A DNA stretch of 45,643 bases from an uncultured Bacteroidia bacterium (lineage in GTDB: Bacteria > Bacteroidota > Bacteroidia > Bacteroidales > UBA932): the NCBI GenBank assembly GCA_902797435.1, contig CADBSV010000077.1:1-45643 (forward strand), given 5' to 3'. The position numbers were made by a program, and so were the translations under genes. The notes under the pieces are model-generated. The model was not told the DNA's origin and did not search any database. It was given only the letters and a program-made list of their open reading frames with translations. Of the stretch, positions 401 through 37,135 are shown piece after piece. How positions within the stretch are numbered: position 1 is the stretch's first letter; each line of letters begins with the position of its first letter.

Positions 401-510
401 CGGAGCTTCCCCCGGACCCAGGCGTCCTCTCAAAGCACCATCGGCAGCATCCGGTGGCACTTCTTTTTTTATGCTTCCGGCGGTGCCCTTAGGGGCCCTG
501 TTTTCAATTT

Positions 511-522
511 TTTGTATATTTA
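511..522 (+). promoter_or_regulatory. Promoter of the stress-response gene cluster
   Basis: TTTGTATATTTA contains a -7 box TATATTTA (515-522), close to the Bacteroidota consensus TAnnTTTG, 22 bases before the ATG at 545. No convincing -33 TTTG is seen. It supports choosing ATG 545 over the long open upstream frame. Confidence 0.55.
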
Positions 523-544
523 CAGTCTGTACGAAAGCCGATAT

Positions 545-1651: not shown

Positions 1652-1654
1652 CTT

Positions 1655-5234: not shown

Positions 5235-5237
5235 CTA

Positions 5238-5866: not shown

Positions 5867-5892
5867 AATCATATCATCAAATACTATCCCTT

Positions 5893-5928
5893 TCCCGCCG
5901 CGCCAACCCCGCGGCGGGATTTGTTTTT
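5893..5928 (+). terminator. Rho-independent terminator
   Basis: A perfect 10-bp stem TCCCGCCGCG (5893-5902) / CGCGGCGGGA (5910-5919) with a 7-base loop is followed by TTTGTTTTT. It ends transcription coming from the stress cluster or the remnant before the next gene. Confidence 0.85.
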
Positions 5929-5951
5929 CTGCTCCCTTTTGGGTATTTTTA
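5920..5951 (+). promoter_or_regulatory. Promoter of the phosphoesterase-GDPD gene, probably leaderless
   Basis: A -33 TTTG (5920-5923) inside the terminator's T run, a 20-base spacer and a -7 TATTTTTA (5944-5951) match Bacteroidota promoters. Only four bases separate the -7 box from ATG 5956, so the transcript probably begins at or next to the start codon. Confidence 0.6.
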
Positions 5952-5955
5952 CGAT

Positions 5956-15089: not shown

Positions 15090-17981
15090 CTACTGCTCCA
15101 GCCAGGTCCCCAGTTCGGAGTAAATCTTCTGTGCAATGAATTCCATCCCTTCCTCTGCTGGGTGGCAACCCTTTTTGGTGGAAGGATTGAAGTCGTGCTT
15201 GGGCATCGGATTCCAGTCGGGATTGTTGGTGACTGCATTGAATCCGTTCACGGCATAAAGGTCCACCGGGCGGGCCCCATAGTGGTTTGCCATGTCTATG
15301 ATTGCATCCGGAATTGCGGAGGTGTAGTAGTAGTCACCGGTAATGCAGACTATCTTTACGGAAGGATACTGGTTCTTCAGGAGGCGAAGCAGTTTACAGT
15401 AGGCCTCGCAGAATGTGGTGTCGGGAAGCGCGGCAATTTCTTCAAAACCTTTTGCCCTGTCGGCTACAGAATAGACCGCGTTCATCTGTTCACGCGAAGG
15501 CATGGTTTCGCTTCTCATGGGGTAATTCGGCGCCAGGTTGTCCACATTGTGTCCATGGTCGTTGGTGCCGCCGTGAATAAGGACGATATCCGGACGGCCC
15601 ACTCCGCCGCATTCGAGGTATCGGGCGTTGAAATCGTGTCCGAACCAGGGCTGATCCGCAGACGAAGCTTTTGTGGTCTTTGTCACCGCCGATCCGGAGA
15701 AAGAGATGTTGGTGTCGAATACGGCATCGCTCATATAATTGTAAATGAGCTTGTACCAATAAGTTTGGCTGACCATGGTAACCGTTCCGTCGGCAGCGGG
15801 GTAATGTGTGCGGTAGGTGGAGTTCGCAAGGTATCCGCGGAATGTCGATATGGAATCGCCAATGACACTCACCCTCTTTGCCTTTTTGCTGCGGGGATGG
15901 GGATCTGCCATGAGGCAGGACAGGGTGGGATAGCCGTCAGCTCCTGCAATCCAGTTCTCTGCACCCGGAACCGACGCAGAGGCGTCCTGAAGCTTGCCGA
16001 GCAGCGTTCCGTCTGTGAACTGTCCGTCGGTGAGCCCTTCGCAGGACGTTTCCTCGACGGATGCGGATTTGGTTGAAGTATTAGGATAGGTTTTCGTATA
16101 GTAGCTATGCGAGAACTTTCCGGCAGAAGAGGATCTGCCATAGAGGGGGCCGCAGTTTTTGGTAGCCGCGGCGGCTATGGTAGTACCGCCGGTGAGAGTG
16201 TTTTCGCCCTTGAGGCTGGAGTAACAGGCTGTCATCGTCAGCAGGCTGGAATTGTTGAATCCGTCCAGAGCTGAGATGCCTCCGATGTGGCCGGCCGTGC
16301 TCCAAAGCAGATCCGCCCTGGAGAAGGAATTGAGGATCTGGGCGGAGCCTGTTCCCTGTACCCATCCGACTATTCCTCCGGCGAGGGCGTAGTTGTTGCT
16401 GTTCATCCCCGTAGCCTTGATGGTGGAACCGATGGCGGCACTGTTCTTTATGGTGACGACCACTCCGTCGGGTTTGGTGTAGGCGTGCCCGACAATTCCT
16501 CCCACGTTATATTCTCCCTGAATATCGGCATAAGACACGCATTTGTCGATAAGCGGCGCCTGTCCCTCAGACAGTGTAATGAAAGCTCCGGCAATGCCTC
16601 CCACGGAATAGTGGTAGGCTCCTACCTGGCCGGCGCTTCCTGCGGCGCAATGCTCCACGGTGCCGTCTTCGATGACAGACACTATACCTCCGGCGTAGGA
16701 GCCTTTGCTGTTTACCATCGCCTCCGATATGCAGTCGGCTATGCGGCCTCCCTGGAGATAGCCGGCGATTCCTCCCGCATTGTGATAGTCGGTATGGACT
16801 TCACTTCCTGCAGATATGCTGCAATTCTCGATTGCGGACTCCTCCGCCCAGCCTGCAATGCCGCCGACATATCGGGAGTCCGAAGCTATGGCAGCCTTTG
16901 ATAGGGAGACATTCCTGACGCAGGCCCCTTTCAGATAACCGAACAACCCTGCCCCCGTCTTTCCAAATACCTTGATATGCAGATTTGAAATCGTGTGGGA
17001 GTCTCCGTCGAAGATACCGGTGAAAGGAATATCATCGGCATAGTTGCCTATCGGGACGAACTCTGCAATTGCGGAGAGGTCGATGTCGGCTGTCATCCTG
17101 TATGCCTTTCCGCAGAATTCATTCCTGGTTTTCGGAGATTTTACCAGCGCCGAAAGGGCCTCCAGGGCCATTGGGGAGTCAATGATGTATGGGTTTGTCT
17201 GGGAACCGTCGCCGGATGCAAAATCCTTGGTGTAGTCTCTGGATTCCTTGAGGGAGAAAACCCCGCGGAGCCGGTTGGAACCGCTTCCGAGGGTGGTAAT
17301 GGGATTGCTCCCCGTGGAATTGGTCCGGGTGATTCTGTAATTTGCCGCGACGCGCAGCTTCAAAAGCAGGGTGTCCTTCACCTCTGACGCCAAATTGAAA
17401 GATGCCGTAAAATCACCTGCGCCCTCGTCAAAGCTGTCCTTTGCTTCTGCGTGGTATGAAAAAGTGTCTCCGGCAATTGTCATCTGGGAAGTCCCGTCAG
17501 CCGTCTTCCAGCTGGTGCCTTTGTCCTCGGAATATTCCACGATGAAGAAAGATGCCGCCGAACCGCTGCCGGCAAGGGAGCCGGAGAAAGTCAGTTCCGT
17601 TCCCGACGGGATGGACTCTACTGGGACGGTAACCAGGAACCCGTCGTCCATATAAATGCCTTTGATGTAAGGATGTCCGTTGGCAAAGGTCCAACCATTC
17701 ATCGCACCGGCAGTTTTCCCGTCAGCCTCAAAAGTGGAGATGATGGATTCCCTGTCATTGTCGGAATAAAGGATATGCTTCTCCTCCCAGTCGGGCTGGG
17801 CCAGCGCAAGGGTGGCGTTTTCGGCATCGGAGCCTTTGATGTAGGAGAAGGTCCAGGTCTTTTCCAGAATAATCCTTTCCGGAACGTCCGGCCCGGCGGG
17901 AATCTTTTCATTCTTTTCGGGGGAACATGCCGGGAGAAGGGCTGCCATAGCTGCAGCGGCGGGTATCCATTTCACTTTCAT
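15090..17981 (-). CDS. GLUG-repeat lipoprotein with C-terminal SGNH hydrolase domain
   Basis: Predicted 963-residue surface lipoprotein (C19, ALLPAC). Residues about 41-250 are the module shared by four proteins of this operon. Residues 250-660 form GLUG repeats (VGGIAGW, AGGIAGYLQGG, VGGIVGHAY), ending in WIAGADGYPTL. An SGNH/GDSL hydrolase follows (about 700-963): block I VIGDSISTF with the nucleophile Ser, IHGGTNDHG for the Gly/Asn blocks, and GCHPAEEGM with the catalytic His. The Asp three residues before this His is replaced by Lys, which is unusual. By family it would remove acyl or acetyl esters. Start ATG 17981 lies ten bases after the previous gene; an upstream in-frame ATG at 18002 would overlap it. 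This is the last gene of the 12-gene operon. Confidence 0.85.
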   Translation of the reverse strand: MKVKWIPAAAAMAALLPACSPEKNEKIPAGPDVPERIILEKTWTFSYIKGSDAENATLALAQPDWEEKHILYSDNDRESIISTFEADGKTAGAMNGWTFANGHPYIKGIYMDDGFLVTVPVESIPSGTELTFSGSLAGSGSAASFFIVEYSEDKGTSWKTADGTSQMTIAGDTFSYHAEAKDSFDEGAGDFTASFNLASEVKDTLLLKLRVAANYRITRTNSTGSNPITTLGSGSNRLRGVFSLKESRDYTKDFASGDGSQTNPYIIDSPMALEALSALVKSPKTRNEFCGKAYRMTADIDLSAIAEFVPIGNYADDIPFTGIFDGDSHTISNLHIKVFGKTGAGLFGYLKGACVRNVSLSKAAIASDSRYVGGIAGWAEESAIENCSISAGSEVHTDYHNAGGIAGYLQGGRIADCISEAMVNSKGSYAGGIVSVIEDGTVEHCAAGSAGQVGAYHYSVGGIAGAFITLSEGQAPLIDKCVSYADIQGEYNVGGIVGHAYTKPDGVVVTIKNSAAIGSTIKATGMNSNNYALAGGIVGWVQGTGSAQILNSFSRADLLWSTAGHIGGISALDGFNNSSLLTMTACYSSLKGENTLTGGTTIAAAATKNCGPLYGRSSSAGKFSHSYYTKTYPNTSTKSASVEETSCEGLTDGQFTDGTLLGKLQDASASVPGAENWIAGADGYPTLSCLMADPHPRSKKAKRVSVIGDSISTFRGYLANSTYRTHYPAADGTVTMVSQTYWYKLIYNYMSDAVFDTNISFSGSAVTKTTKASSADQPWFGHDFNARYLECGGVGRPDIVLIHGGTNDHGHNVDNLAPNYPMRSETMPSREQMNAVYSVADRAKGFEEIAALPDTTFCEAYCKLLRLLKNQYPSVKIVCITGDYYYTSAIPDAIIDMANHYGARPVDLYAVNGFNAVTNNPDWNPMPKHDFNPSTKKGCHPAEEGMEFIAQKIYSELGTWLEQ

Positions 17982-17991
17982 AACTCTCTTT

Positions 17992-18792
17992 TTACTTTCC
18001 AAAAATAACGTTCAGCGCTTTTGCCAGCTGATACCCTGCCTTGCGCAACTCAAGTTCGGCAAGGCCGATGTTTTGCTCCACGAACTCCTGTCCGAGTTCG
18101 GCGCCCTGGGGGACGGTTCCGACTATAGGACGAACATCCCTTGCACAATCCTCAAACCACTCCCTGGCCCAGCCTTTGGTAGCCCGGCGTATATCTTTTC
18201 GGCTCCAGGTGTCCAGCCTGGTCGCATACTCGCGAAAATCGGCAAAGACAAGGCCGCTGCCGCGCTCAATCAGTTTGGAATCCCAAACGCGATGAAGCGT
18301 ATCCATGGGTTTCCCGAAGAAGGAGACAGGGTACTTAAGGTCGTTCACATTGTCGGAAAACCGTACATGGGCAGGACAGTGGAAGTCTCCTACCATGTGG
18401 ATTATGCACTTGATTCCCAGTAGGACGGTGCTGTCCGGAACGCTCTCCAGGTCCGAGAGGCATTCGCGCCAGAACTCCATAGCCGAGACGGCGTCCCTCA
18501 GGCCGCGCACTTCCAGCCTTACGGCAGGAGTGCACTTACAGTCGGGCGTGCACACGGAGGCATGCCAGCCTGCAAGTTTGACATCATAGGGCGGAGTCTT
18601 TACCACATCGTCCATCCAGTGGCTGTATTCCCAGAGGGGAGTGCCTTTGGTGTAGCGTTCAATGTTCTGTTTTGCCCGTTTTGTCAGATGCCTTTCGGCA
18701 ATCTCCGCAATCGTTGCATGACCGAGCCGGCCCCAGCCGAATGAGGGGACGCCCAGCAGGCACAAGAGGACAAAAATCAAGGTTCTTTTCAT
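17992..18792 (-). CDS. S1/P1-type zinc-dependent nuclease/phosphodiesterase
   Basis: Predicted 266-residue exported enzyme. Cleavage after SFG leaves Trp20 as the mature N-terminus, the hallmark of S1/P1 nucleases, where its amino group binds zinc. All nine zinc ligands can be placed: W20, H25, D61 or D62, H77, H132, D136, H142, H167 and D171; WGRLGHATIAEIAE, IHMVGDFHCPAH and LHRVWDSKL are typical. The family cleaves single-stranded nucleic acid and 3'-nucleotides. Its fold and tri-zinc site are shared with bacterial phospholipase C, so in this operon a phosphodiester lipid is an alternative substrate. The start overlaps the upstream gene by four bases (ATGA). It has no lipobox and lacks the shared module. 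Confidence 0.9.
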   Translation of the reverse strand: MKRTLIFVLLCLLGVPSFGWGRLGHATIAEIAERHLTKRAKQNIERYTKGTPLWEYSHWMDDVVKTPPYDVKLAGWHASVCTPDCKCTPAVRLEVRGLRDAVSAMEFWRECLSDLESVPDSTVLLGIKCIIHMVGDFHCPAHVRFSDNVNDLKYPVSFFGKPMDTLHRVWDSKLIERGSGLVFADFREYATRLDTWSRKDIRRATKGWAREWFEDCARDVRPIVGTVPQGAELGQEFVEQNIGLAELELRKAGYQLAKALNVIFGK

Positions 18793-20462
18793 TTCAACAC
18801 AAAGTCAACGATGATTGGTTTATGGTCGGAAGGCTCGTAGAGGGGGCTTACGCCGCTCGCTCTCAAAGGAGCCCAGCACGCTCCGAGGACCTCGGCGTCA
18901 CGGACGCTCCTGTAAAGAGCTTCGGAGAGATATACATAGTCGATACGGATGTTTTTCAAATGAGTCGGAACAAACACTCCTTCGTACCATGTGGAAATAA
19001 GATCGGTAAGGTTCGTACCTTCCAGGATTGCGTCCTGGGCAAGGAACTGAGTGTCATCCTCGGGGAGACCATAGTGGAAATTATCCCTTCTGGAATATGA
19101 ATTCATGTCCCCCAGGACAATCCAGTCGTCGGAAGCATACTGCTTGTTGTTTACCGTATTCTTTACAAGCCACTGCATCTCGTACTGGCGGTAATAATCT
19201 CCTCCATGGGCCGCGGCATCTTCTTTCTGGTCTTCCTCCGCGACACCCTTGGCATAGGATTTCGGCCATAGGTGGGCTGTAAGGATGTTGATGTCGTGCC
19301 CCTTGACGCTTACCTTATGGAGCCCGGCCCCGTGGGCGATGGGTTTCGCGGCATCCTCCGTAACGGTAATCTTCATCAGCGTTTCGATTGGATATTTTGA
19401 TGTGACCTCCTGCGGGCAGCGGTCGTGGTGCCCGCCGATTGCCGTGTAGCCGTGTCCATAACGGGAGGCCAGTTCTCCCCAGTGCTCGGGAAGATACAGC
19501 TGCTCTGCGGGAGTTGTGTCGTATGTGCCGGTATCGTATTTTGACGATGCCTCGCAGAATACGCAGATATCGGGATCTACTTCCTTTATCCAATTCACGA
19601 AGTTGTCGTAGCCGTTCGCCTGGTCCGCCCACATGCCGTACTGGATGTTCCAATACAGAAGACGCACGATATCCTTTCTCTGCACATCCGTACTCCGCAC
19701 CGGGGTAATGGAGATGCTGCAGGCTCCCCTCAGACGGTTCGAGCCTCCTCCTCCGGTTGTGATGGGATTGCTCGCCGTAGCGTTGTTTCGGGTTATCCGG
19801 TAATTGGCGTTAGAACGCAGCCTTAGGAGCAGTTCCCCCGCGGAAGAATCCTCGTTTGCGGTAAAGGACGCGGAAAAATCCCCGTCCCCTGCCGCAAAAG
19901 AATCCTTCGGTGCGCTGTGGCAGGCAAAAGTGTTTCCGTTTATCGTCACTTCGTCTGCTCCGGAAGCGATTCTCCAGCTCTGTCCGCCGTCCAGCGAATA
20001 CTCCGCCAGGAAAAAGCCTGCAGCGGAGCCGGACCCGGACATCGACCCGGAAAACACCACCTTTTCACCGACCTTTATCGTATGAGGAACATGAAACTCT
20101 ATCCAGTCCCCGAAGTAAATTCCCTTTACATAGGGGTGACCATTGTAGAATGTCCACGTATTCATGCGCTCCGCCGTCTTGCCTGCAGCCTCTGCTGTGG
20201 TGATGTAGGCGTCCTGTCCCTGATCCGACCACAGCCTGTGGCCGTCTTCGGGCCAGGCACTCTGCCTGGAGGCGAGTGCTTCGTTATATTCGGCTGTGCC
20301 TTTGGCATAGCTGAAAGTCCAGGACCACGACCGGATGCCGCTCTCCTTCGGCATGCCGGCAGAAGGATTCTTGTCCGTACCGTCCGTGCTTACTGCGCCC
20401 GAGTTGCATGACGAGACGCACAGCGCCGCTGCTGCCGAAAGGAGTATCAGTATCTTTTTCAT
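18789..20462 (-). CDS. Endonuclease/exonuclease/phosphatase-fold lipoprotein
   Basis: Predicted 557-residue surface lipoprotein (C19, CVSSC). Residues about 43-257 are the operon's shared module. The C-terminal half (about 261-557) is an EEP domain: LLYWNIQYG with the metal-site Asn, CVFCEAS with the metal-site Glu, LTAHLWPKS, VLGDMNSYS with catalytic Asp/Asn, RIDYVYLS and PSDHKPIIVDF with the final Asp-His pair. The superfamily includes DNase I, neutral sphingomyelinase and inositol phosphatases, all cutting phosphoester bonds with Mg2+; the sequence does not decide between them. It sits between the SGNH gene (ten-base gap) and the S1/P1 gene (four-base overlap). Confidence 0.88.
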   Translation of the reverse strand: MKKILILLSAAAALCVSSCNSGAVSTDGTDKNPSAGMPKESGIRSWSWTFSYAKGTAEYNEALASRQSAWPEDGHRLWSDQGQDAYITTAEAAGKTAERMNTWTFYNGHPYVKGIYFGDWIEFHVPHTIKVGEKVVFSGSMSGSGSAAGFFLAEYSLDGGQSWRIASGADEVTINGNTFACHSAPKDSFAAGDGDFSASFTANEDSSAGELLLRLRSNANYRITRNNATASNPITTGGGGSNRLRGACSISITPVRSTDVQRKDIVRLLYWNIQYGMWADQANGYDNFVNWIKEVDPDICVFCEASSKYDTGTYDTTPAEQLYLPEHWGELASRYGHGYTAIGGHHDRCPQEVTSKYPIETLMKITVTEDAAKPIAHGAGLHKVSVKGHDINILTAHLWPKSYAKGVAEEDQKEDAAAHGGDYYRQYEMQWLVKNTVNNKQYASDDWIVLGDMNSYSRRDNFHYGLPEDDTQFLAQDAILEGTNLTDLISTWYEGVFVPTHLKNIRIDYVYLSEALYRSVRDAEVLGACWAPLRASGVSPLYEPSDHKPIIVDFVLK

Positions 20463-20472
20463 CAGGGATTAA

Positions 20473-22866: not shown

Positions 22867-22880
22867 GGCGATGGAATCAA

Positions 22881-25643: not shown

Positions 25644-25656
25644 TGCTTTTTTAGTG

Positions 25657-25797
25657 TTACTGCCAGAAATCTTCATCGTTCTCGTAGTCTTTTTTGAGAG
25701 TCATGTCTTCCAGCCCCGATGAATTTTGCAGAAGCGACTCGCTACAAATAATCCTGAACTGGACTATCTGAGGTGGTGTGTACTGTTTTTTGTCCAT
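25657..25797 (-). CDS. 46-residue conserved-type small peptide
   Basis: The ATG at 25797 opens a 46-codon frame ending TAA at 25657: it begins MDKKQYTPPQIVQFRI and ends with SSGLEDMTLKKDYEND plus EDFWQ. It fits a class of short Bacteroidales proteins starting M-K/D-K-K-x-Y-x-x-P next to surface-protein genes; their role is unknown to me. There is no signal peptide. It fills the space between the Ig-domain lipoprotein (24-base gap) and the GLUG gene (13-base gap) exactly as a gene of this operon should. The start is preceded by an A/T-rich stretch rather than a clear Shine-Dalgarno site, as is usual in the group. It is below common gene-finder length cut-offs. Confidence 0.68.
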   Translation of the reverse strand: MDKKQYTPPQIVQFRIICSESLLQNSSGLEDMTLKKDYENDEDFWQ

Positions 25798-25821
25798 AGT
25801 ATATGTGATTTTAGATTATTC

Positions 25822-27240: not shown

Positions 27241-27242
27241 TT

Positions 27243-28514: not shown

Positions 28515-28524
28515 ATGAAGCTCG

Positions 28525-30327
28525 CTATTTTTCCCATCCTGGATTCTGTCCCAGATTTTCATTTACATTCAGTGCGTTTGTAGGGATGGGGTGGACATAT
28601 TTCCGGTCATCCCAGCGGCGGTTAAGCTGGATATAGCATTTCAGATTGCCGGAAGTTCCCCCGGTAAGGGAGAAATCCGACCCGAGTACCCGGTAGGTGA
28701 CTCCGGCCTGGCGGGACGAAGGAGTATTTGCGACAAAGCAGGTCTCCCCGACTCCGTCGCCGTCCATGTCGTACACCTTGCCGAGCTCGCCTACATAAAC
28801 GCCCAGCCACTCCCTTTGGAGCAAGTCGCCCATGGCCCAGCGCATATCATCGTCCCACCGCAGGTTCTCCATAAACAGTTCTATGCCGCGTTCCCGCCTT
28901 ATTTCAAGCAGATCGGCATCGGTTACCCGTCCAAGGAAATAGTCTTTCATATAGGGATCGGCAACCGAAGGCCTTACGGACTTGACGCCGGAGCGCTCCC
29001 GCAGGGGCTTTATGGTCTTGTTCCAGACCGCAGCATCGAATTGTCCGAGTTCCGCTTTCGCCTCGGCATAGTTAAGCAGGATTTCCGCATAACGGATAAT
29101 GGGGATGCAGGTGGCGCAGGGAGACGTGTTGGAGTCCATCGAGGTATCGTCAATCAGCCATTTGATGGGCTGATATCCTGTTACAGAGTAGTTGTAATCT
29201 GGGGCGGTGCGCACCGGGAAACCGCCGCTGAGCCTTGTATATCCCGGATAACGGATGCTCTGGCGGAGCCTCAGGTCGCGGCCCTCGAATTCGGAGGTGA
29301 AAGGTATGGTTTCGTATCCCGGTTTGTTCGTGAAGGGGGTGCCGTCGGTATTGAGATAGGTATTGATGAACTGCTTTACGGGTGAATAACTGCCATACTG
29401 CATGTTCGTGAAATAGCAGTTCAGGTTGTGCACCGCACTGAGGGATTCGTCATATACCCTTGCCCAGATTACTTCTTTGGTGATGACCGACGTGCTCGTG
29501 AAAAGCTCACGGTACTGGACCGAAGTGTTTCCGGGAGCATACAGGGAATAGACCCCCGCGTTCATCAAGGCCTCGCAGGCCGAAACGCATTCGCCGAGAT
29601 AAAGGGCAGACTCGTCTTCACGCCAGTAATCCCCTGTGGAAGGGTCGGCTTCGTGATACTTGCGGTATGTCCCCTCGAAAAGGCAGATGCGGGATTTGAC
29701 AGCGAGGGCGATATAACGGTTGATTCTCGAGGAATTGATAAGGAGCTCCGGAGAATCCGAGCAGTTCTCACAGGCGAAATTGATGTCTTCCAGAACCTTT
29801 TGCATCACATACTCCCGGTTGTCACGTCCTTTGTACAGACGCTCCCTGTCATCCGACGAGATTTCCGTGTCGTAAAACGGGACCGCTCCGAAAGTCTTCA
29901 CCATGTCGAAATAGAAAATGGCCCTCCAGAATCGGGCGACGCCCTCGTAATGGAGGAGAATGTCCTCGGAGACGTCTGCCCTCCGGAAATTGTCCAGGAA
30001 ATAGTTGATGTTGCGGAGCCGTCCCCATACACCCGTGGACCATCCGCCCTGATCGTCGGCGTCGTAGTTGTCCGTAAGGTACTGGTATTCCCCGCGATAG
30101 GCAAGATAATCAGCGCGGGCGTCGCCGGTTGCTATGTCAAGCGCGGAGGGAAGCATATTCTCGATGAAACCGTTGGTATATACCCTCAGGTCGTTCTCTG
30201 TCCTGAAATATGTGGGGCCGTCCACTTTGTTCGGGTCTCCCTGGGTGAGAAAGTCACTGCAGGAGCCCAGGCACAGCAGAAGCGCAGCCGCCGATATGTA
30301 TTTTGTCACCTTCATAACTGTCTTCAT
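28525..30327 (-). CDS. SusD-family substrate-binding lipoprotein
   Basis: Predicted 600-residue outer-membrane lipoprotein (C23, CLGSCSDFL). The SusD/RagB fold is seen in the N-terminal helices (FLTQGDPNKVDGPTYF, WGRLRNINYFLDNF, EGVARFWRAIFYFDMVKTFG), the TPR-like pairs (NRYIALAVKSRICLFEGTYRK, IPIIRYAEILLNYAEAKAEL) and the C-terminal RRERGIELFMENLRWDDDMRW and YVHPIPTNALNVNENLGQN segments. It forms the lid over the SusC barrel and presents ligand for import. It starts one base after the susC stop codon, which is the conserved gene order. Ligand cannot be predicted from the fold. Confidence 0.95.
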   Translation of the reverse strand: MKTVMKVTKYISAAALLLCLGSCSDFLTQGDPNKVDGPTYFRTENDLRVYTNGFIENMLPSALDIATGDARADYLAYRGEYQYLTDNYDADDQGGWSTGVWGRLRNINYFLDNFRRADVSEDILLHYEGVARFWRAIFYFDMVKTFGAVPFYDTEISSDDRERLYKGRDNREYVMQKVLEDINFACENCSDSPELLINSSRINRYIALAVKSRICLFEGTYRKYHEADPSTGDYWREDESALYLGECVSACEALMNAGVYSLYAPGNTSVQYRELFTSTSVITKEVIWARVYDESLSAVHNLNCYFTNMQYGSYSPVKQFINTYLNTDGTPFTNKPGYETIPFTSEFEGRDLRLRQSIRYPGYTRLSGGFPVRTAPDYNYSVTGYQPIKWLIDDTSMDSNTSPCATCIPIIRYAEILLNYAEAKAELGQFDAAVWNKTIKPLRERSGVKSVRPSVADPYMKDYFLGRVTDADLLEIRRERGIELFMENLRWDDDMRWAMGDLLQREWLGVYVGELGKVYDMDGDGVGETCFVANTPSSRQAGVTYRVLGSDFSLTGGTSGNLKCYIQLNRRWDDRKYVHPIPTNALNVNENLGQNPGWEK

Positions 30328-30328
30328 A

Positions 30329-33300
30329 TCAGAATGATGCCGTTACACCGAGAGTCAATTTGCGCAGCATGGGATAACTGTATCCGTCTCCTTCCGAAGT
30401 GCGGAAGTCCGAATCGCCGGAGCTGATTACCTCCGGGTCGTAATTCTGGGTTATCCTGAACATGGGAGACCATGTGAAGAGGTTCTCTCCGGAAATGAAA
30501 ACTTTCAGGGAAGAGACGCCCAGTTTCTCCAGGGCCTTCCGGGGGAAGCTGTAGTCCAAAGTCACATTCTTCAGGCGGATGTACGCGGCATTCTGCATAA
30601 AGCGGTCATTGGCGTAGGAAAGCGGCCTGTTCACGGAGGATTGATGTGTCTGGTAAGCCGCATACTTGGGCCAGTAGGCGGTGTCGTAGTTGTCAAGTTC
30701 CGGACGATAGACATTGTCGCCGGTATGCGCCTTGAGCATGTAGCCGAACGGGCGGTTGTATTGTCCCCAGAAGTAACCGGAGTCGTAGCGGGGGTACCAG
30801 TTCTTCTTGCCTATGCCCTGAAGGAACACGCTGAGGGAGAAACCCTTCCAGTCCGCTCCGAGGCTGATGCCGTAGCTGTACCTTGGCGAAGTGTTTCCGA
30901 TGATTTCCATATCGCCGTGATTGTCAAGCGTATATGTCCCCCTGTCGATGACTCCGTCGCCGTTGAGGTCGGCAAACTTCACCTCGCCCGGACGCGTAAC
31001 CTTGTCCGAAGACTGCAGGAAGGACTGCCTTGCGTGCGAGTCTATGTCGGCCTGGTCCCTGAAAAGGCCTTCCACGCGGTAGCCCCAGATTTCTCCAATC
31101 TCCTTGCCGACGTAATAGTCGGAAAGCGACCCGGTGGGATTGATGTACTTGGTAACGAAAGTCCTTGAATCCCAGAGCATGAATTTGAAGCTGTAACCGA
31201 AGTCGCTTCCTCCGGCACTGAAGCGGTCCCTCCATCCCAGGCTGAATTCCCAGCCGCTTGTGCGCATTGATGCGTTGTTTCCTTTCGGAGACGCCGTTCC
31301 GAACACCGCCGGCAGCGCCACGCCCGTGGTGTACATGTCGTCGGTGATTCTCCTGAAGATGTCAGAGCTGAAGGAAAGACGGTCCCCAAGGATGTCCAAA
31401 TCCAGTCCTGCATCGTATGTCGCCGCCCTTTCCCAGGTGAGGGAAAGCGGTACCGCCCCCGGAGCCTGGGTGTAGGTGTCGAGGGAACTTCCGATGACGG
31501 TGGAACTGGTGGACAGGGACATATAGTCTATATACTGGTAGGGCGAGATGTTTCCGTTCCCCATGGCTCCGGCGGAAATCCTGAGCTTGAGGTTGTCCAT
31601 CCAGTCTTTCGCCCAATGCATGAAATTCTCTTCGTTGATTCGCCACCCGAAGGATGCGGAAGGGAAAAAGCCCCATTTCGAATTCTCGGGAAACTTGGAC
31701 GAGCCGTCATAACGGGCGCTCACCTCGGCGAGGTAACGGCCCTTGTAGCTGTAGTTGATTCTGCCGAAGATGCCTACATAACTCCACTTGTAGCCACCCT
31801 CCGAGGGATCGTCGGTAAGACCGTCCATCAGGGAGAAACTGGGTTTGTCGGCAATAGTGATGCCTTCACGTTTGATGGTTAGGGTGTGATAGTCCTTGGT
31901 CTCGAGGTTCCATCCGGCAAGGATTCGGAGAGTGTTGTCCTTTCCGATCCCGGGGGTGAACTCGGCGTAGATGTTGGAAGCTATGTAGTCCGTATCGTAA
32001 CGCACGTTCTGGTGGGTCGAACCCTGGCTTTCATTCACCGTTACGGTGCTTTGGGCTCCCGTGTGTCCGGTGTATTTGTTCGTTACCCTGTCACGCTCCC
32101 TGCGCGTGTATATATAGGAGAAGTCTCCCTGGAGCTTGAGGATATCCTTGACGATGTCTATATCGACCGATAATTTATCCTTGAGGGTAAGGGTTTTTTC
32201 GTCCTGGTAGGAAGTTCCTTCCGCGAATCCGGCATAGCCGTTGAGGACGGCCGCGTGAGTCCAGGTTCCGTCAGGGTTCCTGGGCAGGGTTACCGGTTGG
32301 CCGCTGTGTTCTATCATCCTCTGGACCAGCTGATTGGAGTAGTAGAGCATGGGCTGGTGGTAGTCCACCTTCGTGAAATCCAGGTTCTGGGTTATCCTCA
32401 GCCACGGACGTATCTGCAGCGAGCCCTTGTCCCTTATATTGTACTGATTGTATCTTTCGTCCCCGACGCGGTATATTCCGTCCTGCCCATAGTATCTTCC
32501 TGACACGTAGTAGGTTAAGGTCTTGTTTCCGCCGGAAACGGAAAGGTTGTGCTCCTGGGACATGTTGGCGTCCTTGTAGAACAGGGAATGCCAGTCTGTG
32601 TTCCCGAAGTATTCATACATTCCGTCGTCGTTGAGACGGACCCTTTCCAAAGAAAAGTCTGTGGAACGGCGTTCCAGCTCGGCAAGGTAGTCGTCGCTGA
32701 ACGGAACGATGTTGTTGATGGTGTTGTTGTAAGGGCGCGAACCGTTGTAATATCCGTCCCAGGCGTTCATATAGCCGTTAACCCAGGTGTATCCGTCCGT
32801 AACCAGCTGCGGGATCACCGTCCTCTGGTTGACGGATACATTTCCGTTGTAGGTTACATTCACCTTGCCTTCGGAGGCATTCTTTGTGGTTACCAGGATT
32901 ACGCCGAAAGCTCCCCTTGCGCCGTAAATGGCGGTTGAGGAGGCGTCCTTCAGCACGGAGACGCTTTCAATATCCTGCGGATTCACTGTTTCCAGGTCTC
33001 CCTCCACTCCGTCTATGAGCACCAGTGCGCTGCCTCCCGAGCCTATGGAACCGGTGCCGCGGACATTGATGGAAGCGCTCCTGGACGGTTTTCCGTCCCG
33101 CATCGTGATGTTGAGATTGGGAATGGATCCCTGCAGGGAGCGGGATATGCTGGGATTCGAACGGCTTTCGAACTGTTTGGAAGAGACGGCATCCACGCTT
33201 CCCACAAGGTCGCGTTTCTTTACGGTTCCGTATCCCACTACTACGATTTCATCCAGAAGGTTGGTGTCTGAATCGAGTACAATGGAAAGCGGCTCCGTCA

Positions 33301-33565
33301 TTCCTTCAGTCACCGTGATTTCTACGGTCTTGAAACCTATGGTGGATACTTCCAATACGGTTCCCGGCTCGGCGCTGAGAGTGAAGGCGCCGTCAAAATC
33401 CGTCACGGTTCCGGATGTAGTCCCTTTCACAAGAACGCCGGCGCCGATAAGGGGTTCCCCCTGGGCGTCGGTCACCGTCCCCCTCAGATTAATGTTCTGG
33501 GCGGAAAGTCCAAGCGGGAATAAGACTCCCGCAAAAAGCATCAATATCTTTCCGGATAATCTCAT
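30329..33565 (-). CDS. SusC-family TonB-dependent outer-membrane transporter
   Basis: Predicted 1078-residue outer-membrane beta-barrel. A signal peptide (about 1-22, LGLSAQ) is followed by a carboxypeptidase-regulatory-like domain (about 25-100; LRGTVTDAQGEPLIGAGV), the SusC signature EIVVVGYGTVKKRDLVGSV, the plug (about 115-230; NVRGTGSIGSGGSALVLIDG) and the barrel up to the aromatic terminus KLTLGVTASF. By family it imports oligomers too large for porins using TonB energy. The frame is open to 33907, but ATG 33565 overlaps the glpT stop by four bases (ATGA) and gives a proper signal peptide. A SusC gene translationally coupled to a cytoplasmic-membrane transporter gene is uncommon. Confidence 0.95.
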   Translation of the reverse strand: MRLSGKILMLFAGVLFPLGLSAQNINLRGTVTDAQGEPLIGAGVLVKGTTSGTVTDFDGAFTLSAEPGTVLEVSTIGFKTVEITVTEGMTEPLSIVLDSDTNLLDEIVVVGYGTVKKRDLVGSVDAVSSKQFESRSNPSISRSLQGSIPNLNITMRDGKPSRSASINVRGTGSIGSGGSALVLIDGVEGDLETVNPQDIESVSVLKDASSTAIYGARGAFGVILVTTKNASEGKVNVTYNGNVSVNQRTVIPQLVTDGYTWVNGYMNAWDGYYNGSRPYNNTINNIVPFSDDYLAELERRSTDFSLERVRLNDDGMYEYFGNTDWHSLFYKDANMSQEHNLSVSGGNKTLTYYVSGRYYGQDGIYRVGDERYNQYNIRDKGSLQIRPWLRITQNLDFTKVDYHQPMLYYSNQLVQRMIEHSGQPVTLPRNPDGTWTHAAVLNGYAGFAEGTSYQDEKTLTLKDKLSVDIDIVKDILKLQGDFSYIYTRRERDRVTNKYTGHTGAQSTVTVNESQGSTHQNVRYDTDYIASNIYAEFTPGIGKDNTLRILAGWNLETKDYHTLTIKREGITIADKPSFSLMDGLTDDPSEGGYKWSYVGIFGRINYSYKGRYLAEVSARYDGSSKFPENSKWGFFPSASFGWRINEENFMHWAKDWMDNLKLRISAGAMGNGNISPYQYIDYMSLSTSSTVIGSSLDTYTQAPGAVPLSLTWERAATYDAGLDLDILGDRLSFSSDIFRRITDDMYTTGVALPAVFGTASPKGNNASMRTSGWEFSLGWRDRFSAGGSDFGYSFKFMLWDSRTFVTKYINPTGSLSDYYVGKEIGEIWGYRVEGLFRDQADIDSHARQSFLQSSDKVTRPGEVKFADLNGDGVIDRGTYTLDNHGDMEIIGNTSPRYSYGISLGADWKGFSLSVFLQGIGKKNWYPRYDSGYFWGQYNRPFGYMLKAHTGDNVYRPELDNYDTAYWPKYAAYQTHQSSVNRPLSYANDRFMQNAAYIRLKNVTLDYSFPRKALEKLGVSSLKVFISGENLFTWSPMFRITQNYDPEVISSGDSDFRTSEGDGYSYPMLRKLTLGVTASF

Positions 33566-34893
33566 GCCTTTTCTTCGTGAATATAACCGTCGTCCTTTAT
33601 GTTCCAGAGGAAGGCGCAAAGCACTCCTCCCAGGACTGCAAATCCAGCCATAAGTATAAACAGATTGTCCCAGCCGAAACGGTCGCTGAACCAACCGAGC
33701 CCGGCTCCCGTGATGATGACCGAGACATAGCTCATCAGCCCTATCAGGCCGACGGCCGAGGATGCCGCCTTCTTGGTGGCATGTTTTGATGCCGTTACTC
33801 CGAGAAGGGCCTGCGGGCCATAGAGGAAGAATCCCGCCAGAGAAAGGATTCCGAGCACCACGACAGGCGATGTGGAATCCGGAATCAGATGGAGTATAAC
33901 GAGGCATACTGCCACCAGGCCCATTTCAACCGCACATACGCGGTGCGTCTTTCCACCGAAGAAGTGGTCGGAAATCCACCCGGCGCAAAGCATTCCGGCG
34001 CATCCTGCCACTTCGAATATTCCGATGGTCCATCCGGCGAGGTGCGGAGAAAGGGGGACGGACATCTTCCCGAGGAAGGTGGGCCCCCAGTCCAGCACGG
34101 CGAAACGTACCACATAGACGAACAGGTCCGTGATTGCAAGGACCCAGATTACAGGGTTGAGGAAAACTTTTTTCCGCACGAAAGCCCGGTAGGCATCGCT
34201 TGAGTCGTTGCCGTCAAGTTCCGTTTTTGTGTCCGGGAGTTCCGGAAGTCCGACCGAGGAAGGCGTGTCCCTCAGTGTTATATAAATGAACAGAATACCT
34301 GCAGCGGCGATTGCTCCAGGAATCCAGAAGCACAGGCGCCAGTCGCCGGTGCTGCTTACTATATAGCCGCAGAGGACGGCGAGGACTCCTGCCCCTATGG
34401 AATGCGAGGTGTTCCAGATGGCGGTTTTCGTTGCAAGTTCCCTGGGGGCTACCCAGTGGTTGAGAAGCCGGTTGCAAGGGGGAAATCCGCAGCCCTGGAA
34501 TACATTGTTGAGCACAAGCAGAATGCCCATTACCAGCACCATCGTTCCCACGAAATCGGGGCCTCCCTGCTGGCCGGTTATCAGGGCCGATATCCTGTCG
34601 CTCCAGCCAAACAGGAAATTGAGCCCGACGCAGGCGCTGAGTCCTATTACGAGGTGCCAGCGCGCATTGAAGCGGTCTGCGATGAACCCGTTGAGGAACT
34701 TGGACACTCCATATATTATTCCCACAAGGGAAAGGATGATACCGAAATCCGTATTGGTTATGCCATATTGGGCGCTGAGCACGGGCATCGCAAAGGAAAA
34801 GTTCTTCCTCACGAAATAGAACATGGAATAGCCTATCATCGAAGAGATGATGACACGCCATTGCCAATATGAAAACGACCGCTTAGTCTGCAT
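33562..34893 (-). CDS. glpT: GlpT/UhpT-type organophosphate:phosphate antiporter
   Basis: Predicted 443-residue inner-membrane protein with 12 transmembrane segments, major facilitator superfamily, OPA family. The residues that bind the phosphate group in GlpT are present: R29 in YFVRKNFSFAMP, H164 in NTSHSIGAG, and R263 in VVRFAVLDWGPTFL. By family it exchanges internal phosphate for external glycerol-3-phosphate or a hexose phosphate. The next gene upstream is a glycerol-3-phosphate dehydrogenase, which favours glycerol-3-phosphate as substrate; this is inference. Gaps are nine bases to gpsA and a four-base overlap with susC. Confidence 0.88.
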   Translation of the reverse strand: MQTKRSFSYWQWRVIISSMIGYSMFYFVRKNFSFAMPVLSAQYGITNTDFGIILSLVGIIYGVSKFLNGFIADRFNARWHLVIGLSACVGLNFLFGWSDRISALITGQQGGPDFVGTMVLVMGILLVLNNVFQGCGFPPCNRLLNHWVAPRELATKTAIWNTSHSIGAGVLAVLCGYIVSSTGDWRLCFWIPGAIAAAGILFIYITLRDTPSSVGLPELPDTKTELDGNDSSDAYRAFVRKKVFLNPVIWVLAITDLFVYVVRFAVLDWGPTFLGKMSVPLSPHLAGWTIGIFEVAGCAGMLCAGWISDHFFGGKTHRVCAVEMGLVAVCLVILHLIPDSTSPVVVLGILSLAGFFLYGPQALLGVTASKHATKKAASSAVGLIGLMSYVSVIITGAGLGWFSDRFGWDNLFILMAGFAVLGGVLCAFLWNIKDDGYIHEEKA

Positions 34894-34902
34894 TGTCGAT
34901 TA

Positions 34903-35955
34903 TTATATGTGTTCGTATGTGAAAGCCTCCCAGGGAAGGTCTGCATCTGCCTTGCCCTTGTCGAGTATATCGACAATATGCATGAGGAGGGGGAAATCCT
35001 TCAGGTCAACCAGGCCGAGTTCTGCCTTGCGGCGGATGGCGCGGCCCATTACGCGTGTGATGACGAGGCTCTCCAGAGTGATGCCGGCGAGGGCTTCGGT
35101 AACCTCGTCATAGTTGAGCCCGCGGCCCATCAGCACTCCGCATTTACGGGTTCTGCCGCTGAAAATCGTCACATACAGGTCTCCGAGGCCGATGCATTCG
35201 GATTCGAATGTTCCTCCCTGCATTTTCATGAGGGCGTGGGTCTCGCGGACGGCCTGGGTGAATGTTCCGGCCTGGGAGTTATAGTGCTGGGGCTCATCTT
35301 CTCCGTGCCAGCGGGTATTGAGCCCGACGGCGAGGGTGACAGCCATTGCGTATGCGTTCTTAAGAGCTACCGCACTCTCCAGCCCGATCACGTCGTCGGT
35401 GAGGGAAATGTGGTAATAGGGACGCTGCATGGCCTCTTTCATCATTCTGAGCGCCTTGGGATCCTTGCCGCAGAAGCCGACCTCGGAGGGGTCCATGAAT
35501 ACGAGTTCGTAAGACGTGCACGGGCCGCCGATGGCGCATATTGTCCTGTGGATGCCCCGCTTTGCGAGTTCACTCTCCCAGAATCCGGGATAGGAAAGAA
35601 GCGAGCCGTCCTCCGTGGCCCTGAGCCCTTTAGTGACGGAAAGAACCGGCAGCGATGGGTCGAGCTTTGTGAGAATCTCCTCGAGGAACCAGTCCACTCC
35701 GAAAGAAGAAACGCCGCCAATCATGAAATCGGCTCCCTTAACGACTTCCTGCCAGTCTTTGAAATAATGGAATTTTACATTCTCCGGGAAAGGACGGCAG
35801 AACTTCTCGTGCTTCCTGGTGGCGATATAACCATCGATGATTCCGTCATCCAGACATGTACCTACGATATGGACATCATTTCCATTTTCTGCGGCGGGGA
35901 AGGCCAAGGCGGACCCCATCATTCCTGCTCCTAAAATAACAATCTTACGTTTCAT
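34903..35955 (-). CDS. gpsA: NAD(P)-dependent glycerol-3-phosphate dehydrogenase
   Basis: Predicted 350-residue cytosolic enzyme interconverting glycerol-3-phosphate and dihydroxyacetone phosphate. The Rossmann motif VILGAGMMGSALAF is at the N-terminus. The GpsA catalytic region is seen in VTKGLRATEDG, GGPCTSYEL, ALKNAYAMAVTLAVGLN with the catalytic Lys, and CIGLGDLYVTIFSGRTRKCG. As first gene of a catabolic operon it probably runs in the oxidising direction, feeding imported glycerol-3-phosphate into glycolysis. A housekeeping gpsA for lipid synthesis may exist elsewhere. The frame is open to 36150, but that would pass through the operator and promoter, so ATG 35955 is the start. Confidence 0.9.
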   Translation of the reverse strand: MKRKIVILGAGMMGSALAFPAAENGNDVHIVGTCLDDGIIDGYIATRKHEKFCRPFPENVKFHYFKDWQEVVKGADFMIGGVSSFGVDWFLEEILTKLDPSLPVLSVTKGLRATEDGSLLSYPGFWESELAKRGIHRTICAIGGPCTSYELVFMDPSEVGFCGKDPKALRMMKEAMQRPYYHISLTDDVIGLESAVALKNAYAMAVTLAVGLNTRWHGEDEPQHYNSQAGTFTQAVRETHALMKMQGGTFESECIGLGDLYVTIFSGRTRKCGVLMGRGLNYDEVTEALAGITLESLVITRVMGRAIRRKAELGLVDLKDFPLLMHIVDILDKGKADADLPWEAFTYEHI

Positions 35956-35992
35956 ACTGAAATATCTGTTTCTAAATCCTTCTTTTTTATTT

Positions 35993-36008
35993 GAGTGCAC
36001 GTGCACTC
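35993..36008. promoter_or_regulatory. Operator: perfect 16-bp palindrome for the LacI-type regulator
   Basis: GAGTGCAC (35993-36000) and GTGCACTC (36001-36008) form a perfect palindrome with the central CG typical of LacI-family operators. It starts five bases downstream of the -7 box of the gpsA promoter, covering the expected transcription start, so bound repressor would block initiation. I saw no second copy in the window. Confidence 0.8.
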
Positions 36009-36013
36009 TTTTG

Positions 36014-36043
36014 CAAAGATAAGCCATAAAAATTAAAATCAAA
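36014..36043 (-). promoter_or_regulatory. Promoter of the 12-gene gpsA-glpT-susCD operon
   Basis: On the minus strand a -33 TTTG (36043-36040), an 18-base spacer and a -7 TATCTTTG (36021-36014) match the Bacteroidota consensus. The leader to ATG 35955 would be about 50 bases and begins within the palindrome. No other promoter is evident within the operon, though I could not search exhaustively. Confidence 0.75.
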
Positions 36044-36052
36044 AAATAATTA

Positions 36053-36060
36053 GTACTTTT
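36053..36060 (+). promoter_or_regulatory. -7 box of the LacI-type regulator gene
   Basis: TACTTTTG, an exact TAnnTTTG match, lies 19 bases before GTG 36080. It overlaps the TTG at 36059, which rules that codon out as start. Confidence 0.5.
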
Positions 36061-36079
36061 GGAGAAAACACGACGAATA

Positions 36080-37135
36080 GTGCAAGAAACAGACAATAAA
36101 ACTCCTACTGTCTTTGATGTAGCCGATTTGGCCGGAGTCTCCAGAGGCACCGTGGACAGAGTTCTATATGGTAGAGGGCGCGTGTCTCAATCAACGCGCG
36201 AAAAGGTGCTTTCCGCAATTTCATCCCTCAACTATATCCCCAACTCCCACGCATCACAGCTTGCCTCCCGGAAAGAGTACCTTTTCTGCTGTCTCATTCC
36301 TGAGTTCTCGAAGGGGGAATACTGGGAATATATAAACACCGGATTTGTGGAGGCGGCCAAGAACTTCTCCTCCTACAGCCTGAAGCTGAGAATATACTAC
36401 TACAACCAGAACGAAGAGTCCTCATTTGTAGAGAACAGCCGGAAGATACTGGAAAGTTCCCCCTCCGGTGTAATCATGAACGCCGTGTTCCGCGACGAAG
36501 TCACCCTATTTGCCCACAAACTGGAAGAAAAGGGGATTCCCTACGCTTTCGTGGACAACAAAATCGACGAACTGGATTATACTCTTTACCACGGAGTCGA
36601 TCCATACAAGAGCGGCGCACTGGGAGCATACCTTCTTACCGTGAGGAGCGATGTCAAGGATGTACTGATGGTGCGTCTGAAACGAGATCCCCGACGCAAG
36701 GCAGACCCCAACAGGCCCAGGAGGCACGGCTTCACCGACTATGTTGAAGACCACTTCCCGCAGTGCCGGATACATACCGTTTTCATAGACCCGGAAGATT
36801 CGGAAGGAACTCTCCTCGTGATGGAGGACTTTTTCAAAAGGCATCCCGACGTTCATCATATAGCCATGACGAACTCGCGCGTGTTCCTGCTCGGGGAGTA
36901 CCTGAAAAAGCATCCGGATCCGCAGAGGATCGTCGTCGGATTCGACGATCTTGACAACAACCTGAATGCTGTAAAGGACGGGCTGGTCAACTGCCTTGTG
37001 ATACGACACATTTCGCAGCAGTCATACGCTTCACTCACCTCGTTTGCGGAGTTTGTCATTCTTGGCCGCACCCCCAGGCACAGGAACAATTTCGTGCACA
37101 TGGGCATCCTGACCAAGATGAATATGGATTCATAG
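36080..37135 (+). CDS. LacI-family transcriptional regulator
   Basis: Predicted 351-residue DNA-binding regulator. The N-terminal helix-turn-helix TVFDVADLAGVSRGTVDRVL is followed by the hinge region of LacI proteins (SSLNYIPNSHASQLASR) and a periplasmic-binding-like sensor domain (about 60-340; CLIPEFSKGEYW, GVIMNAVFRDE, RRHGFTDYVED, RIVVGFDDLDNN). I start at GTG 36080 because the TTG at 36059 overlaps the gene's own -7 box. It is transcribed away from the gpsA operon, and the palindrome between them is its probable operator. The inducer is unknown; glycerol-3-phosphate or a sugar phosphate would fit the operon. Confidence 0.88.
   Translation: MQETDNKTPTVFDVADLAGVSRGTVDRVLYGRGRVSQSTREKVLSAISSLNYIPNSHASQLASRKEYLFCCLIPEFSKGEYWEYINTGFVEAAKNFSSYSLKLRIYYYNQNEESSFVENSRKILESSPSGVIMNAVFRDEVTLFAHKLEEKGIPYAFVDNKIDELDYTLYHGVDPYKSGALGAYLLTVRSDVKDVLMVRLKRDPRRKADPNRPRRHGFTDYVEDHFPQCRIHTVFIDPEDSEGTLLVMEDFFKRHPDVHHIAMTNSRVFLLGEYLKKHPDPQRIVVGFDDLDNNLNAVKDGLVNCLVIRHISQQSYASLTSFAEFVILGRTPRHRNNFVHMGILTKMNMDS

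What the first reader, a model, noticed from the sequence alone, without database searches (positions are those of the whole stretch)
15090..37135. A 12-gene LacI-controlled SusC/D operon built around glycerol-3-phosphate
Twelve minus-strand genes from gpsA (35955) to an SGNH protein (15090) are separated by at most 24 bases, several by ATGA overlaps, with one evident promoter and a palindromic operator next to a divergent LacI gene. The contents are gpsA, glpT, susC, susD, two binding-type lipoproteins, a small peptide, a GLUG protein and four secreted hydrolases, two of which attack phosphoester bonds. No glycoside hydrolase is present, unlike a polysaccharide utilisation locus. The inferred system collects a glycerophosphate-containing substrate (phospholipid head groups, teichoic acid or similar), cuts it outside, imports glycerol-3-phosphate by GlpT and oxidises it by GpsA. 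Nucleic acid scavenging is the main alternative.
Basis: partly seen in the sequence, partly recalled or inferred. Interest (0 to 1): 0.87.

Follow-up and report, generated by a model that had tools for sequence, protein, structure and literature searches.

The report
Gut bacterium's teichoic-acid-like feeding operon
A gut-type Bacteroidales bacterium carries one switchable block of twelve genes that appears to bind, cut up, import and burn a glycerol-phosphate polymer, most likely the teichoic acid of Gram-positive neighbours' walls, which would extend a sugar-eating machinery to a phosphate-linked wall polymer.

Summary
In detail: twelve minus-strand genes (15090-35955), at most 24 bp apart, behind one Bacteroidota-type promoter and a perfect 16-bp palindrome beside a divergent LacI gene. 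Among 41 Bacteroidales-type loci with a close GpsA relative, GlpT follows in 25 of 35 with enough sequence, LacI is near in 21 of 37 and SusC is in line in 8 of 24. All 21 with LacI keep the operator. Two relatives have GDPD-glpA-glpB-glpC behind gpsA-glpT; others add GDPD, S1/P1, EEP, metallophosphoesterase and SGNH genes. A glycerol-3-phosphate diester as substrate class is therefore well supported (0.8). New clue: lipoprotein 25822-27240 is an Ig domain plus a propeller weakly related to PF21311, a phage receptor-binding platform; its best fold match is a phage receptor-binding protein. In phage phi11 such a propeller is thought to bind wall teichoic acid. A CBM-like domain recurs on four operon lipoproteins. 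I commit to a poly(glycerol-phosphate) teichoic acid utilisation operon (0.5); phospholipid-derived glycerophosphodiesters are the main rival (0.3). Nothing biochemical was tested.

The parts
36080..37135 (+). LacI-family repressor (ORF opens at TTG 36059; GTG 36080 is my likelier start)
   Evidence: PF00356 and PF13407; relatives near gpsA in 21 of 37 loci
35993..36008 (.). operator GAGTGCACGTGCACTC
   Evidence: exact palindrome, only exact copy in the genome; core GTGCACGTGCAC with at most 2 mismatches in 21 of 21 loci with LacI nearby
36014..36021 (-). Bacteroidota-type -7 element TATCTTTG of the operon promoter
   Evidence: motif recalled
34903..35955 (-). gpsA: divergent NAD(P)-dependent glycerol-3-phosphate dehydrogenase
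33562..34893 (-). glpT-like organophosphate antiporter
30329..33565 (-). susC
   Evidence: TIGR04056, 855.6 bits; start by signal peptide
28525..30327 (-). susD
   Evidence: PF07980
27243..28514 (-). BACON lipoprotein with C-terminal CBM-like domain
   Evidence: PF13004; shared domain
25822..27240 (-). lipoprotein: Big_2 Ig domain plus propeller related to phage receptor-binding platforms (PF21311, under cut-off)
25657..25797 (-). 46-aa ORF; weakly similar small ORFs lie in a like position in L133 and L130
22881..25637 (-). GLUG-repeat lipoprotein
   Evidence: PF07581
20473..22866 (-). CBM-like domain plus DUF4886 (SGNH-like) lipoprotein
18789..20462 (-). CBM-like domain plus EEP phosphodiesterase lipoprotein
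   Evidence: PF03372
17992..18792 (-). S1/P1 nuclease-family secreted protein
   Evidence: PF02265; relatives in L085 and L129
15090..17981 (-). CBM-like domain plus GLUG plus SGNH esterase lipoprotein
5791..8199 (+). metallophosphoesterase-GDPD fusion, outside the operon but possibly serving the same substrate
   Evidence: PF16371, PF00149, PF16370, PF03009
12883..13683 (-). PAP2/PhoC-like acid phosphatase near the operon end; membership not claimed

Best explanation
A LacI-repressed SusC/D operon for a glycerol-3-phosphate diester polymer, most likely poly(glycerol phosphate) teichoic acid of Gram-positive neighbours. Inferred order: surface lipoproteins (phage-RBP-like propeller, four copies of a CBM-like domain, GLUG proteins) hold the polymer; SGNH-type esterases remove ester groups such as D-alanyl or acyl groups; EEP, S1/P1 and, in relatives or elsewhere in the genome, GDPD and metallophosphoesterases cut the phosphodiester backbone; SusC/D imports fragments; GlpT brings G3P across the inner membrane; GpsA makes dihydroxyacetone phosphate. 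LacI bound just downstream of the -7 element blocks the operon until an unknown inducer appears. Shown by sequence: gene content, one tightly packed unit, conserved operator, conserved though patchy linkage, domain homologies. Inferred: substrate, order of steps, direction of GpsA.
For: Packed unit with promoter-operator. Operator core with at most 2 mismatches in 21 of 21 loci with LacI nearby (19 with at most 1, 9 exact), 0 of 21 in a coding control, 0.001 expected per locus from shuffles. Linkage glpT 25 of 35, lacI 21 of 37, susC 8 of 24. gpsA-glpT-GDPD-glpA-glpB-glpC in L050 (GlpA, GlpB, GlpC over equivalog cut-offs; GDPD PF03009 103 bits) and clustered relatives in the same order in L023. 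L034/L129: gpsA-GDPD-glpT-susC-susD-BACON-propeller-S1/P1-metallophosphoesterase in one run. L030/L130: gpsA, susCD, BACON, EEP (PF03372), then a GLUG-SGNH protein. L085: gpsA-GDPD-S1/P1-SusC. For teichoic acid: 8 of 9 propeller relatives match PF21311 at E up to 5 (best 1.8e-4; window 8.8e-4), a model that at E up to 0.1 rings in 2 of 14 control genomes (B. subtilis over cut-off or M. acetivorans; one of the two) and at one place in this genome; top PDB fold match is the RBP of phage NF5, E 1.3e-9, which also aligns the GH-T-E-W stretch in a weak profile match. Relatives add GH123, GH27, GH43, which fits sugar-decorated teichoic acid. GlpQ, a glycerophosphodiesterase, degrades sn-G3P wall teichoic acid (PMC7086022, abstract).
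Confidence: 0.5

Rival explanations
1. Scavenging of membrane phospholipids: the SGNH proteins deacylate phospholipids, EEP, S1/P1 (phospholipase C-like fold, recalled) and GDPD split glycerophosphodiesters, and G3P enters through GlpT.
For: GDPD and GlpT/GlpABC in relatives suit glycerophosphodiesters of the sn-3 series; SGNH proteins are often lipases or esterases (family knowledge).
Against: Small glycerophosphodiesters should need no propeller or CBM-like domains; relatives add GH123, GH27 and GH43; the propeller is related to phage receptor-binding proteins.
Confidence: 0.3
2. A phosphorylated glycan (glycerol-phosphate-substituted capsule, osmoregulated glucan or similar) is the substrate and G3P is only a side group.
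For: GH123 x2 and a histidine phosphatase (L081), GH27 (L082) and GH43 (L061) near related gpsA genes; CBM-like folds of the shared domain.
Against: No glycoside hydrolase family among the window operon proteins (11 scanned with Pfam, 12 with NCBIfam). In L034/L129 none was seen either, but an 839-aa protein at its end has no Pfam match.
Confidence: 0.13
3. Nucleic acid scavenging through S1/P1 and EEP nucleases.
For: S1/P1 and EEP families are best known as nucleases (family knowledge).
Against: No nucleoside transporter, nucleosidase or phosphorylase family among the operon proteins; the linkage to gpsA, glpT, GDPD and glpABC has no evident role in DNA use.
Confidence: 0.04
4. Chance neighbourhood: an ordinary SusC/D locus joined to a gpsA-glpT unit that serves lipid metabolism.
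For: gpsA is 84-97% identical between loci while partners vary more; this GpsA type often is the only GpsA found; 16 of 24 loci lack SusC in line.
Against: Overlapping and closely spaced genes behind one promoter; repeated joining to SusC/D, GDPD, S1/P1 and propeller genes.
Confidence: 0.03

Closest known systems
Bacteroidota polysaccharide utilisation locus (PUL; Sus-type)
   Same: SusC/SusD pair, surface lipoproteins, secreted hydrolases, inner-membrane MFS transporter, local regulator, one unit
   Different: phosphodiesterases and esterases instead of glycoside hydrolases; LacI instead of the usual SusR, hybrid two-component or ECF sigma regulators (recalled); the product would be G3P
glp regulon (GlpT, GlpQ, GlpABC; enterobacteria)
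   Same: GlpT-type import and G3P dehydrogenation; relatives carry GDPD and GlpABC
   Different: GpsA-type dehydrogenase in the operon, LacI regulator and outer-membrane SusC/D capture
Bacillus teichoic acid turnover (GlpQ, PhoD)
   Same: phosphodiesterases that would free sn-G3P from poly(glycerol phosphate) wall polymer (GlpQ: PMC7086022, abstract)
   Different: there an organism recycles its own wall; here a Gram-negative would eat another's; EEP and S1/P1 families in the operon
Phage phi11 receptor-binding protein platform / PF21311
   Same: weak profile match and fold match to a phage RBP propeller; that PF21311 covers the phi11 platform is inferred from its description
   Different: a lipoprotein with an N-terminal Ig domain, below the Pfam cut-off, without phage stem or tower; phi11 itself not among the fold matches shown

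Membership tests
Sus-type utilisation locus | adjacent SusC and SusD genes | tested here: met
   TIGR04056 855.6 bits and PF07980 150.3 bits
Sus-type utilisation locus | carbohydrate-active enzymes in the locus (polysaccharide kind) | tested here: not met
   no glycoside hydrolase or lyase family among 11 proteins scanned with Pfam and 12 with NCBIfam; relatives have some
Sus-type utilisation locus | substrate-induced expression as one unit | tested here: inconclusive
   architecture and operator fit; a -7-like motif before sgnh is not excluded as a promoter; induction not testable
GpsA glycerol-3-phosphate dehydrogenase | N- and C-terminal GPDH domains with catalytic lysines | tested here: met
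   both Pfam domains over cut-off; KGL and LKN lysines align with 1txg (their role is recalled)
GpsA glycerol-3-phosphate dehydrogenase | score over a GpsA NCBIfam cut-off | tested here: not met
   best 98.3 bits against 257 (subfamily) and 86.6 against 423 (equivalog)
GlpT | score over the glpT equivalog cut-off | tested here: not met
   272.5 against 632.55 bits
GlpT | transport of G3P | not testable with these tools
   only context
PF21311 phage receptor-binding propeller | score over Pfam gathering cut-off | tested here: not met
   19.4 against 23.7 bits
PF21311 phage receptor-binding propeller | five-bladed propeller fold | tested here: inconclusive
   all-beta model, mean pLDDT 82; top PDB match phage NF5 RBP, E 1.3e-9 but TM 0.45; blades not counted
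Teichoic acid degradation system | phosphodiesterase that acts on teichoic acid | not testable with these tools
   EEP and S1/P1 here; GDPD in relatives

The most novel reading that the evidence does not exclude
A dedicated teichoic-acid utilisation locus in Gram-negative gut Bacteroidales, in which a surface lipoprotein shares its wall-polymer-recognising propeller with receptor-binding proteins of phages, and may itself be a new class of teichoicase: nine propeller sequences (the window's and eight others at 26-50% identity to it; two of the nine are near-identical) keep 31 invariant positions, many of them charged (H75, E82, D86, R114, D158, R174, E260, R292, E316, E318, K321), more like an active site than a simple lectin.
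Probability: 0.38. Interest if true: 0.82.

Novelty: new variant of a known kind. Interest (0 to 1): 0.6.

Why it matters
Sus-type loci are known for polysaccharides. One aimed at a glycerol-phosphate wall polymer would mean that herbivore-gut Bacteroidales live partly on the walls of Gram-positive neighbours, would open a route for wall carbon and phosphate turnover in the rumen, and would supply a set of testable teichoic-acid-binding and -cleaving proteins. The question what happens to teichoic acids of dead Gram-positive cells in the gut becomes testable with twelve named genes.

Tried and rejected
Nucleic-acid scavenging was considered and rejected as main reading, because the conserved partners are G3P genes.

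An operator-based wider regulon: only one exact site in the genome; with up to 3 mismatches 5 sites against 1 in the control, none compelling.

Internal promoters: the strict pattern was too strict (it missed the proposed promoter); the looser look is what I rely on, and it leaves one -7-like motif before sgnh.

Structure of the EEP domain: the model was poor from residue 298 on (mean pLDDT 55 overall), so only the N-terminal domain was used. Foldseek against viral models was dominated by Ig-domain proteins. PHROGs matches lay essentially in the Ig domain. The c39 protein next to gpsA in L030, L054 and L082 has no Pfam match better than E 0.08 (only the L030 copy was scanned).

Propeller neighbourhoods beyond the gpsA loci: of 11 further stretches, 7 have a phosphoesterase or esterase within about 7 kb (L159, L160, L162, L164, L166, L167 by BLAST label; L161 by Pfam, on the other strand) and 4 (L158, L163, L165, L168) have none that I labelled. 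So the propeller is not always with phosphoesterases.

Co-occurrence of propeller and this GpsA in the family sample (9 genomes with both, 11 with propeller, 19 with GpsA, of 299; Fisher p 1e-10) is weak evidence, because 10 of 11 and 18 of 19 lie in one genus and kinship was not corrected for.

Literature: ten searches in an open-licence library returned no title describing a SusC/D locus for teichoic acid or glycerophosphodiesters; this is judged from the listed rows only (some searches matched more papers than were listed), and subscription papers and preprints are largely missing. Three papers were opened: PMC4901313 (passages), PMC13274773 (passages; umbrella toxin propeller lectins that bind a teichuronic-acid-like wall polymer, a different system) and PMC7086022 (abstract and outline).

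Full report
OBSERVATION. The ORF list and Pfam/NCBIfam scans confirm the twelve genes. With start codons chosen by signal peptide and by eye, intergenic gaps are 9, -4, 1, 10, 2, 24, 19, 14, 10, -4 and 10 bp. A minus-strand TATCTTTG (Bacteroidota -7 type; motif recalled) at 36021-36014, with a TTTG 18 bp before it, is followed 5 bp later by the palindrome GAGTGCACGTGCACTC (35993-36008). A divergent LacI gene starts at 36059 (TTG) or more likely 36080 (GTG). Inside the operon I found one -7-like motif within 150 bp of a gene start, 26 bp before sgnh, which is at the level of the reversed control (1 against 3 in the whole operon); sigma-70-like sites are at background. The operon ends at 15090; the next long ORF that I took for a gene (13808-14683) is on the other strand.

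OPERATOR. I scored the core GTGCACGTGCAC within 150 bp upstream of gpsA in the 44 loci. In the 21 loci with a LacI relative nearby (divergent in 19, same strand in L015 and L024, about 1 kb away in L034), all 21 have it with at most 2 mismatches, 19 with at most 1, 9 exactly; a 150-bp coding control gives 0 of 21 and shuffles 0.001 per locus. Of the 23 other loci 3 have it, one of which (L049) is an artefact of the contig start. So the LacI-operator pair is real and conserved.

LINKAGE. The genome-contig scan found 44 loci: 41 with GpsA 84-97% identical, in records titled Bacteroidales, Bacteroidia or families within them (many titles name ruminant or other herbivore gut samples), and 3 at 52-53% in Oscillospiraceae. 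Of the 41, 35 hold at least 1.5 kb downstream and 25 of these have a GlpT relative on the same strand within 3.3 kb; 37 hold at least 1.3 kb upstream and 21 have LacI within 1.2 kb; 24 hold at least 6 kb downstream and 8 have SusC in line within 9 kb (L021, too short for that count, also has one). Four of 41 show none of the three (L019, L032 at a contig end, L036, L040). The scan uses exact short peptides and therefore sees close relatives only. In whole genomes, 1 of 295 of the order matched at 1e-60 (the window's own) and 19 of 299 of the family at 1e-40, 18 of them in the window's genus. The trait is patchy.

WHAT THE RELATIVES ADD. L050 and L023: gpsA-glpT-GDPD-glpA-glpB-glpC; the L050 proteins exceed equivalog cut-offs for GlpA, GlpB and GlpC and its GDPD exceeds the PF03009 cut-off. 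L034 with its continuation L129: gpsA-GDPD-glpT-susC-susD-BACON-propeller-S1/P1-metallophosphoesterase, all one direction, SusC 62% and SusD 60% identical to the window. L030/L130: LacI, gpsA, an unnamed 295-aa protein, susCD, BACON, EEP, an unnamed lipoprotein, GLUG-SGNH. L085: gpsA-GDPD-S1/P1-SusC. L081/L136: gpsA-glpT-propeller-large lipoprotein-susCD-histidine phosphatase-GH123-GH123, and in the next stretch on the same strand a protein 69% identical to the L050 GDPD and two more propellers. L082: gpsA-glpT-susCD-BACON-propeller-GH27. The own genome's second copy (contig 35, 64% identical) follows GH43, SGNH, a type I phosphodiesterase and a porin-like protein just under cut-off. These partners repeatedly point at phosphodiester-linked glycerol phosphate, sometimes glycosylated.

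THE PROPELLER. The 25822-27240 lipoprotein has an Ig domain (PF02368) and a C-terminal region that Pfam leaves unnamed at the usual threshold. Scanned as a family, 8 of 9 members match PF21311, described as the five-bladed receptor-binding platform of phages, at E up to 5 (best 1.8e-4; window 8.8e-4, 19.4 bits against a cut-off of 23.7). The full L081 relative gives only 12.6 bits. The model is selective at E up to 0.1: 2 of 14 control genomes (B. subtilis, M. acetivorans; one over cut-off) and one place in this genome. AlphaFold gave mean pLDDT 82 and the best PDB match was the receptor-binding protein of phage NF5, E 1.3e-9, 368 columns, TM 0.45 by query length, rmsd 7.4; no phi11 receptor-binding protein is among the 50 rows shown. 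The NF5 sequence also appears weakly (E 0.62, second of two rows) in a profile search with the propeller alone, aligning the conserved GH-T-E-W stretch. In phage phi11 the five-bladed platform carries a cavity that could take the GlcNAc of wall teichoic acid; the contact was modelled and soaking failed (PMC4901313, passages). This step moves me from 'some glycerophosphodiester' to teichoic acid; it is a lead, not a proof.

THE SHARED DOMAIN. Four operon lipoproteins (BACON, DUF4886, EEP, SGNH) carry one ~205-residue domain at 39-51% pairwise identity, without a Pfam match over cut-off there. In the model its region (44-253) is mostly confident and Foldseek finds CBM4, CBM86, CBM6 and CBM22 jelly rolls at E of about 1e-4 to 1e-3. 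Repeating one putative ligand-binding module on three enzymes and one binding protein suggests that they work on the same surface-bound polymer. In the family sample 27 of 299 genomes have a match at E up to 0.001.

GpsA AND ITS DIRECTION. The protein keeps the lysine motifs of 1txg but is remote from the bacterial GpsA models. In 39 of the 299 family genomes (the 19 with a match and the 20 others listed there), PF07479 shows the canonical type in 14, the divergent type in 19, both in 3, neither in 8 and a fragment in 1. So this type may stand in for housekeeping GpsA in the genus, and its catabolic role here is inferred from company (GlpT, GDPD, GlpABC), not proved. Stereochemistry matters: wall teichoic acid is sn-G3P, lipoteichoic acid sn-G1P (PMC7086022, abstract), so GlpT/GpsA fit wall teichoic acid or phospholipid-derived diesters better than lipoteichoic acid; L041 has a glycerol-1-phosphate-dehydrogenase-like gene (145.5 bits against a cut-off of 413) and a HAD phosphatase just before gpsA-glpT, which would fit the other enantiomer.

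CONCLUSION. Ordinary in its parts (SusC/D, GlpT, GpsA), unusual in combination.

Noticed in passing
window 101-5543 (+): Compact run of RelA/SpoT-domain protein, HD protein, APH-type kinase, Cache-SpoIIE-HATPase protein and STAS protein: a possible partner-switching or stringent signalling cluster.
   Followed up: no
window 5791-8199 (+): Fusion of a calcineurin-like phosphoesterase and a GDPD in one protein; L129, L164 and L159 have relatives of the phosphoesterase part in or near propeller loci.
   Followed up: partly
window 25657-25797; L133 10823-10951; L130 2723-2848: A 42-46-aa ORF lies just before a large lipoprotein gene in all three operons; the similarity is weak (E 0.6 and 5.5).
   Followed up: partly
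39 of 299 family genomes examined: 8 genomes, each listed as 96-98% complete, gave no GpsA-family match and 16 gave only the divergent type: the source of G3P for lipid synthesis is unclear.
   Followed up: partly
L041 5501-9965; L033 7664-12152: A GH28-looking protein (by eye), a glycerol-1-phosphate-dehydrogenase-like and a HAD phosphatase gene cluster with or near gpsA-glpT.
   Followed up: no
window 37147-37923; L168 7645-8529: A ZIP zinc transporter lies next to the lacI gene here, and a 61% identical one lies next to a propeller gene in another genome.
   Followed up: no
L011-L054: GpsA is 84-97% identical in 41 loci while the nearby GlpT (46-95%) and LacI (47-87%) vary more: transfer of gpsA or unusually strong constraint.
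   Followed up: no
L051, L052, L053: 52-53% identical GpsA relatives in Oscillospiraceae records, without a GlpT, LacI or SusC match in the held stretch.
   Followed up: no
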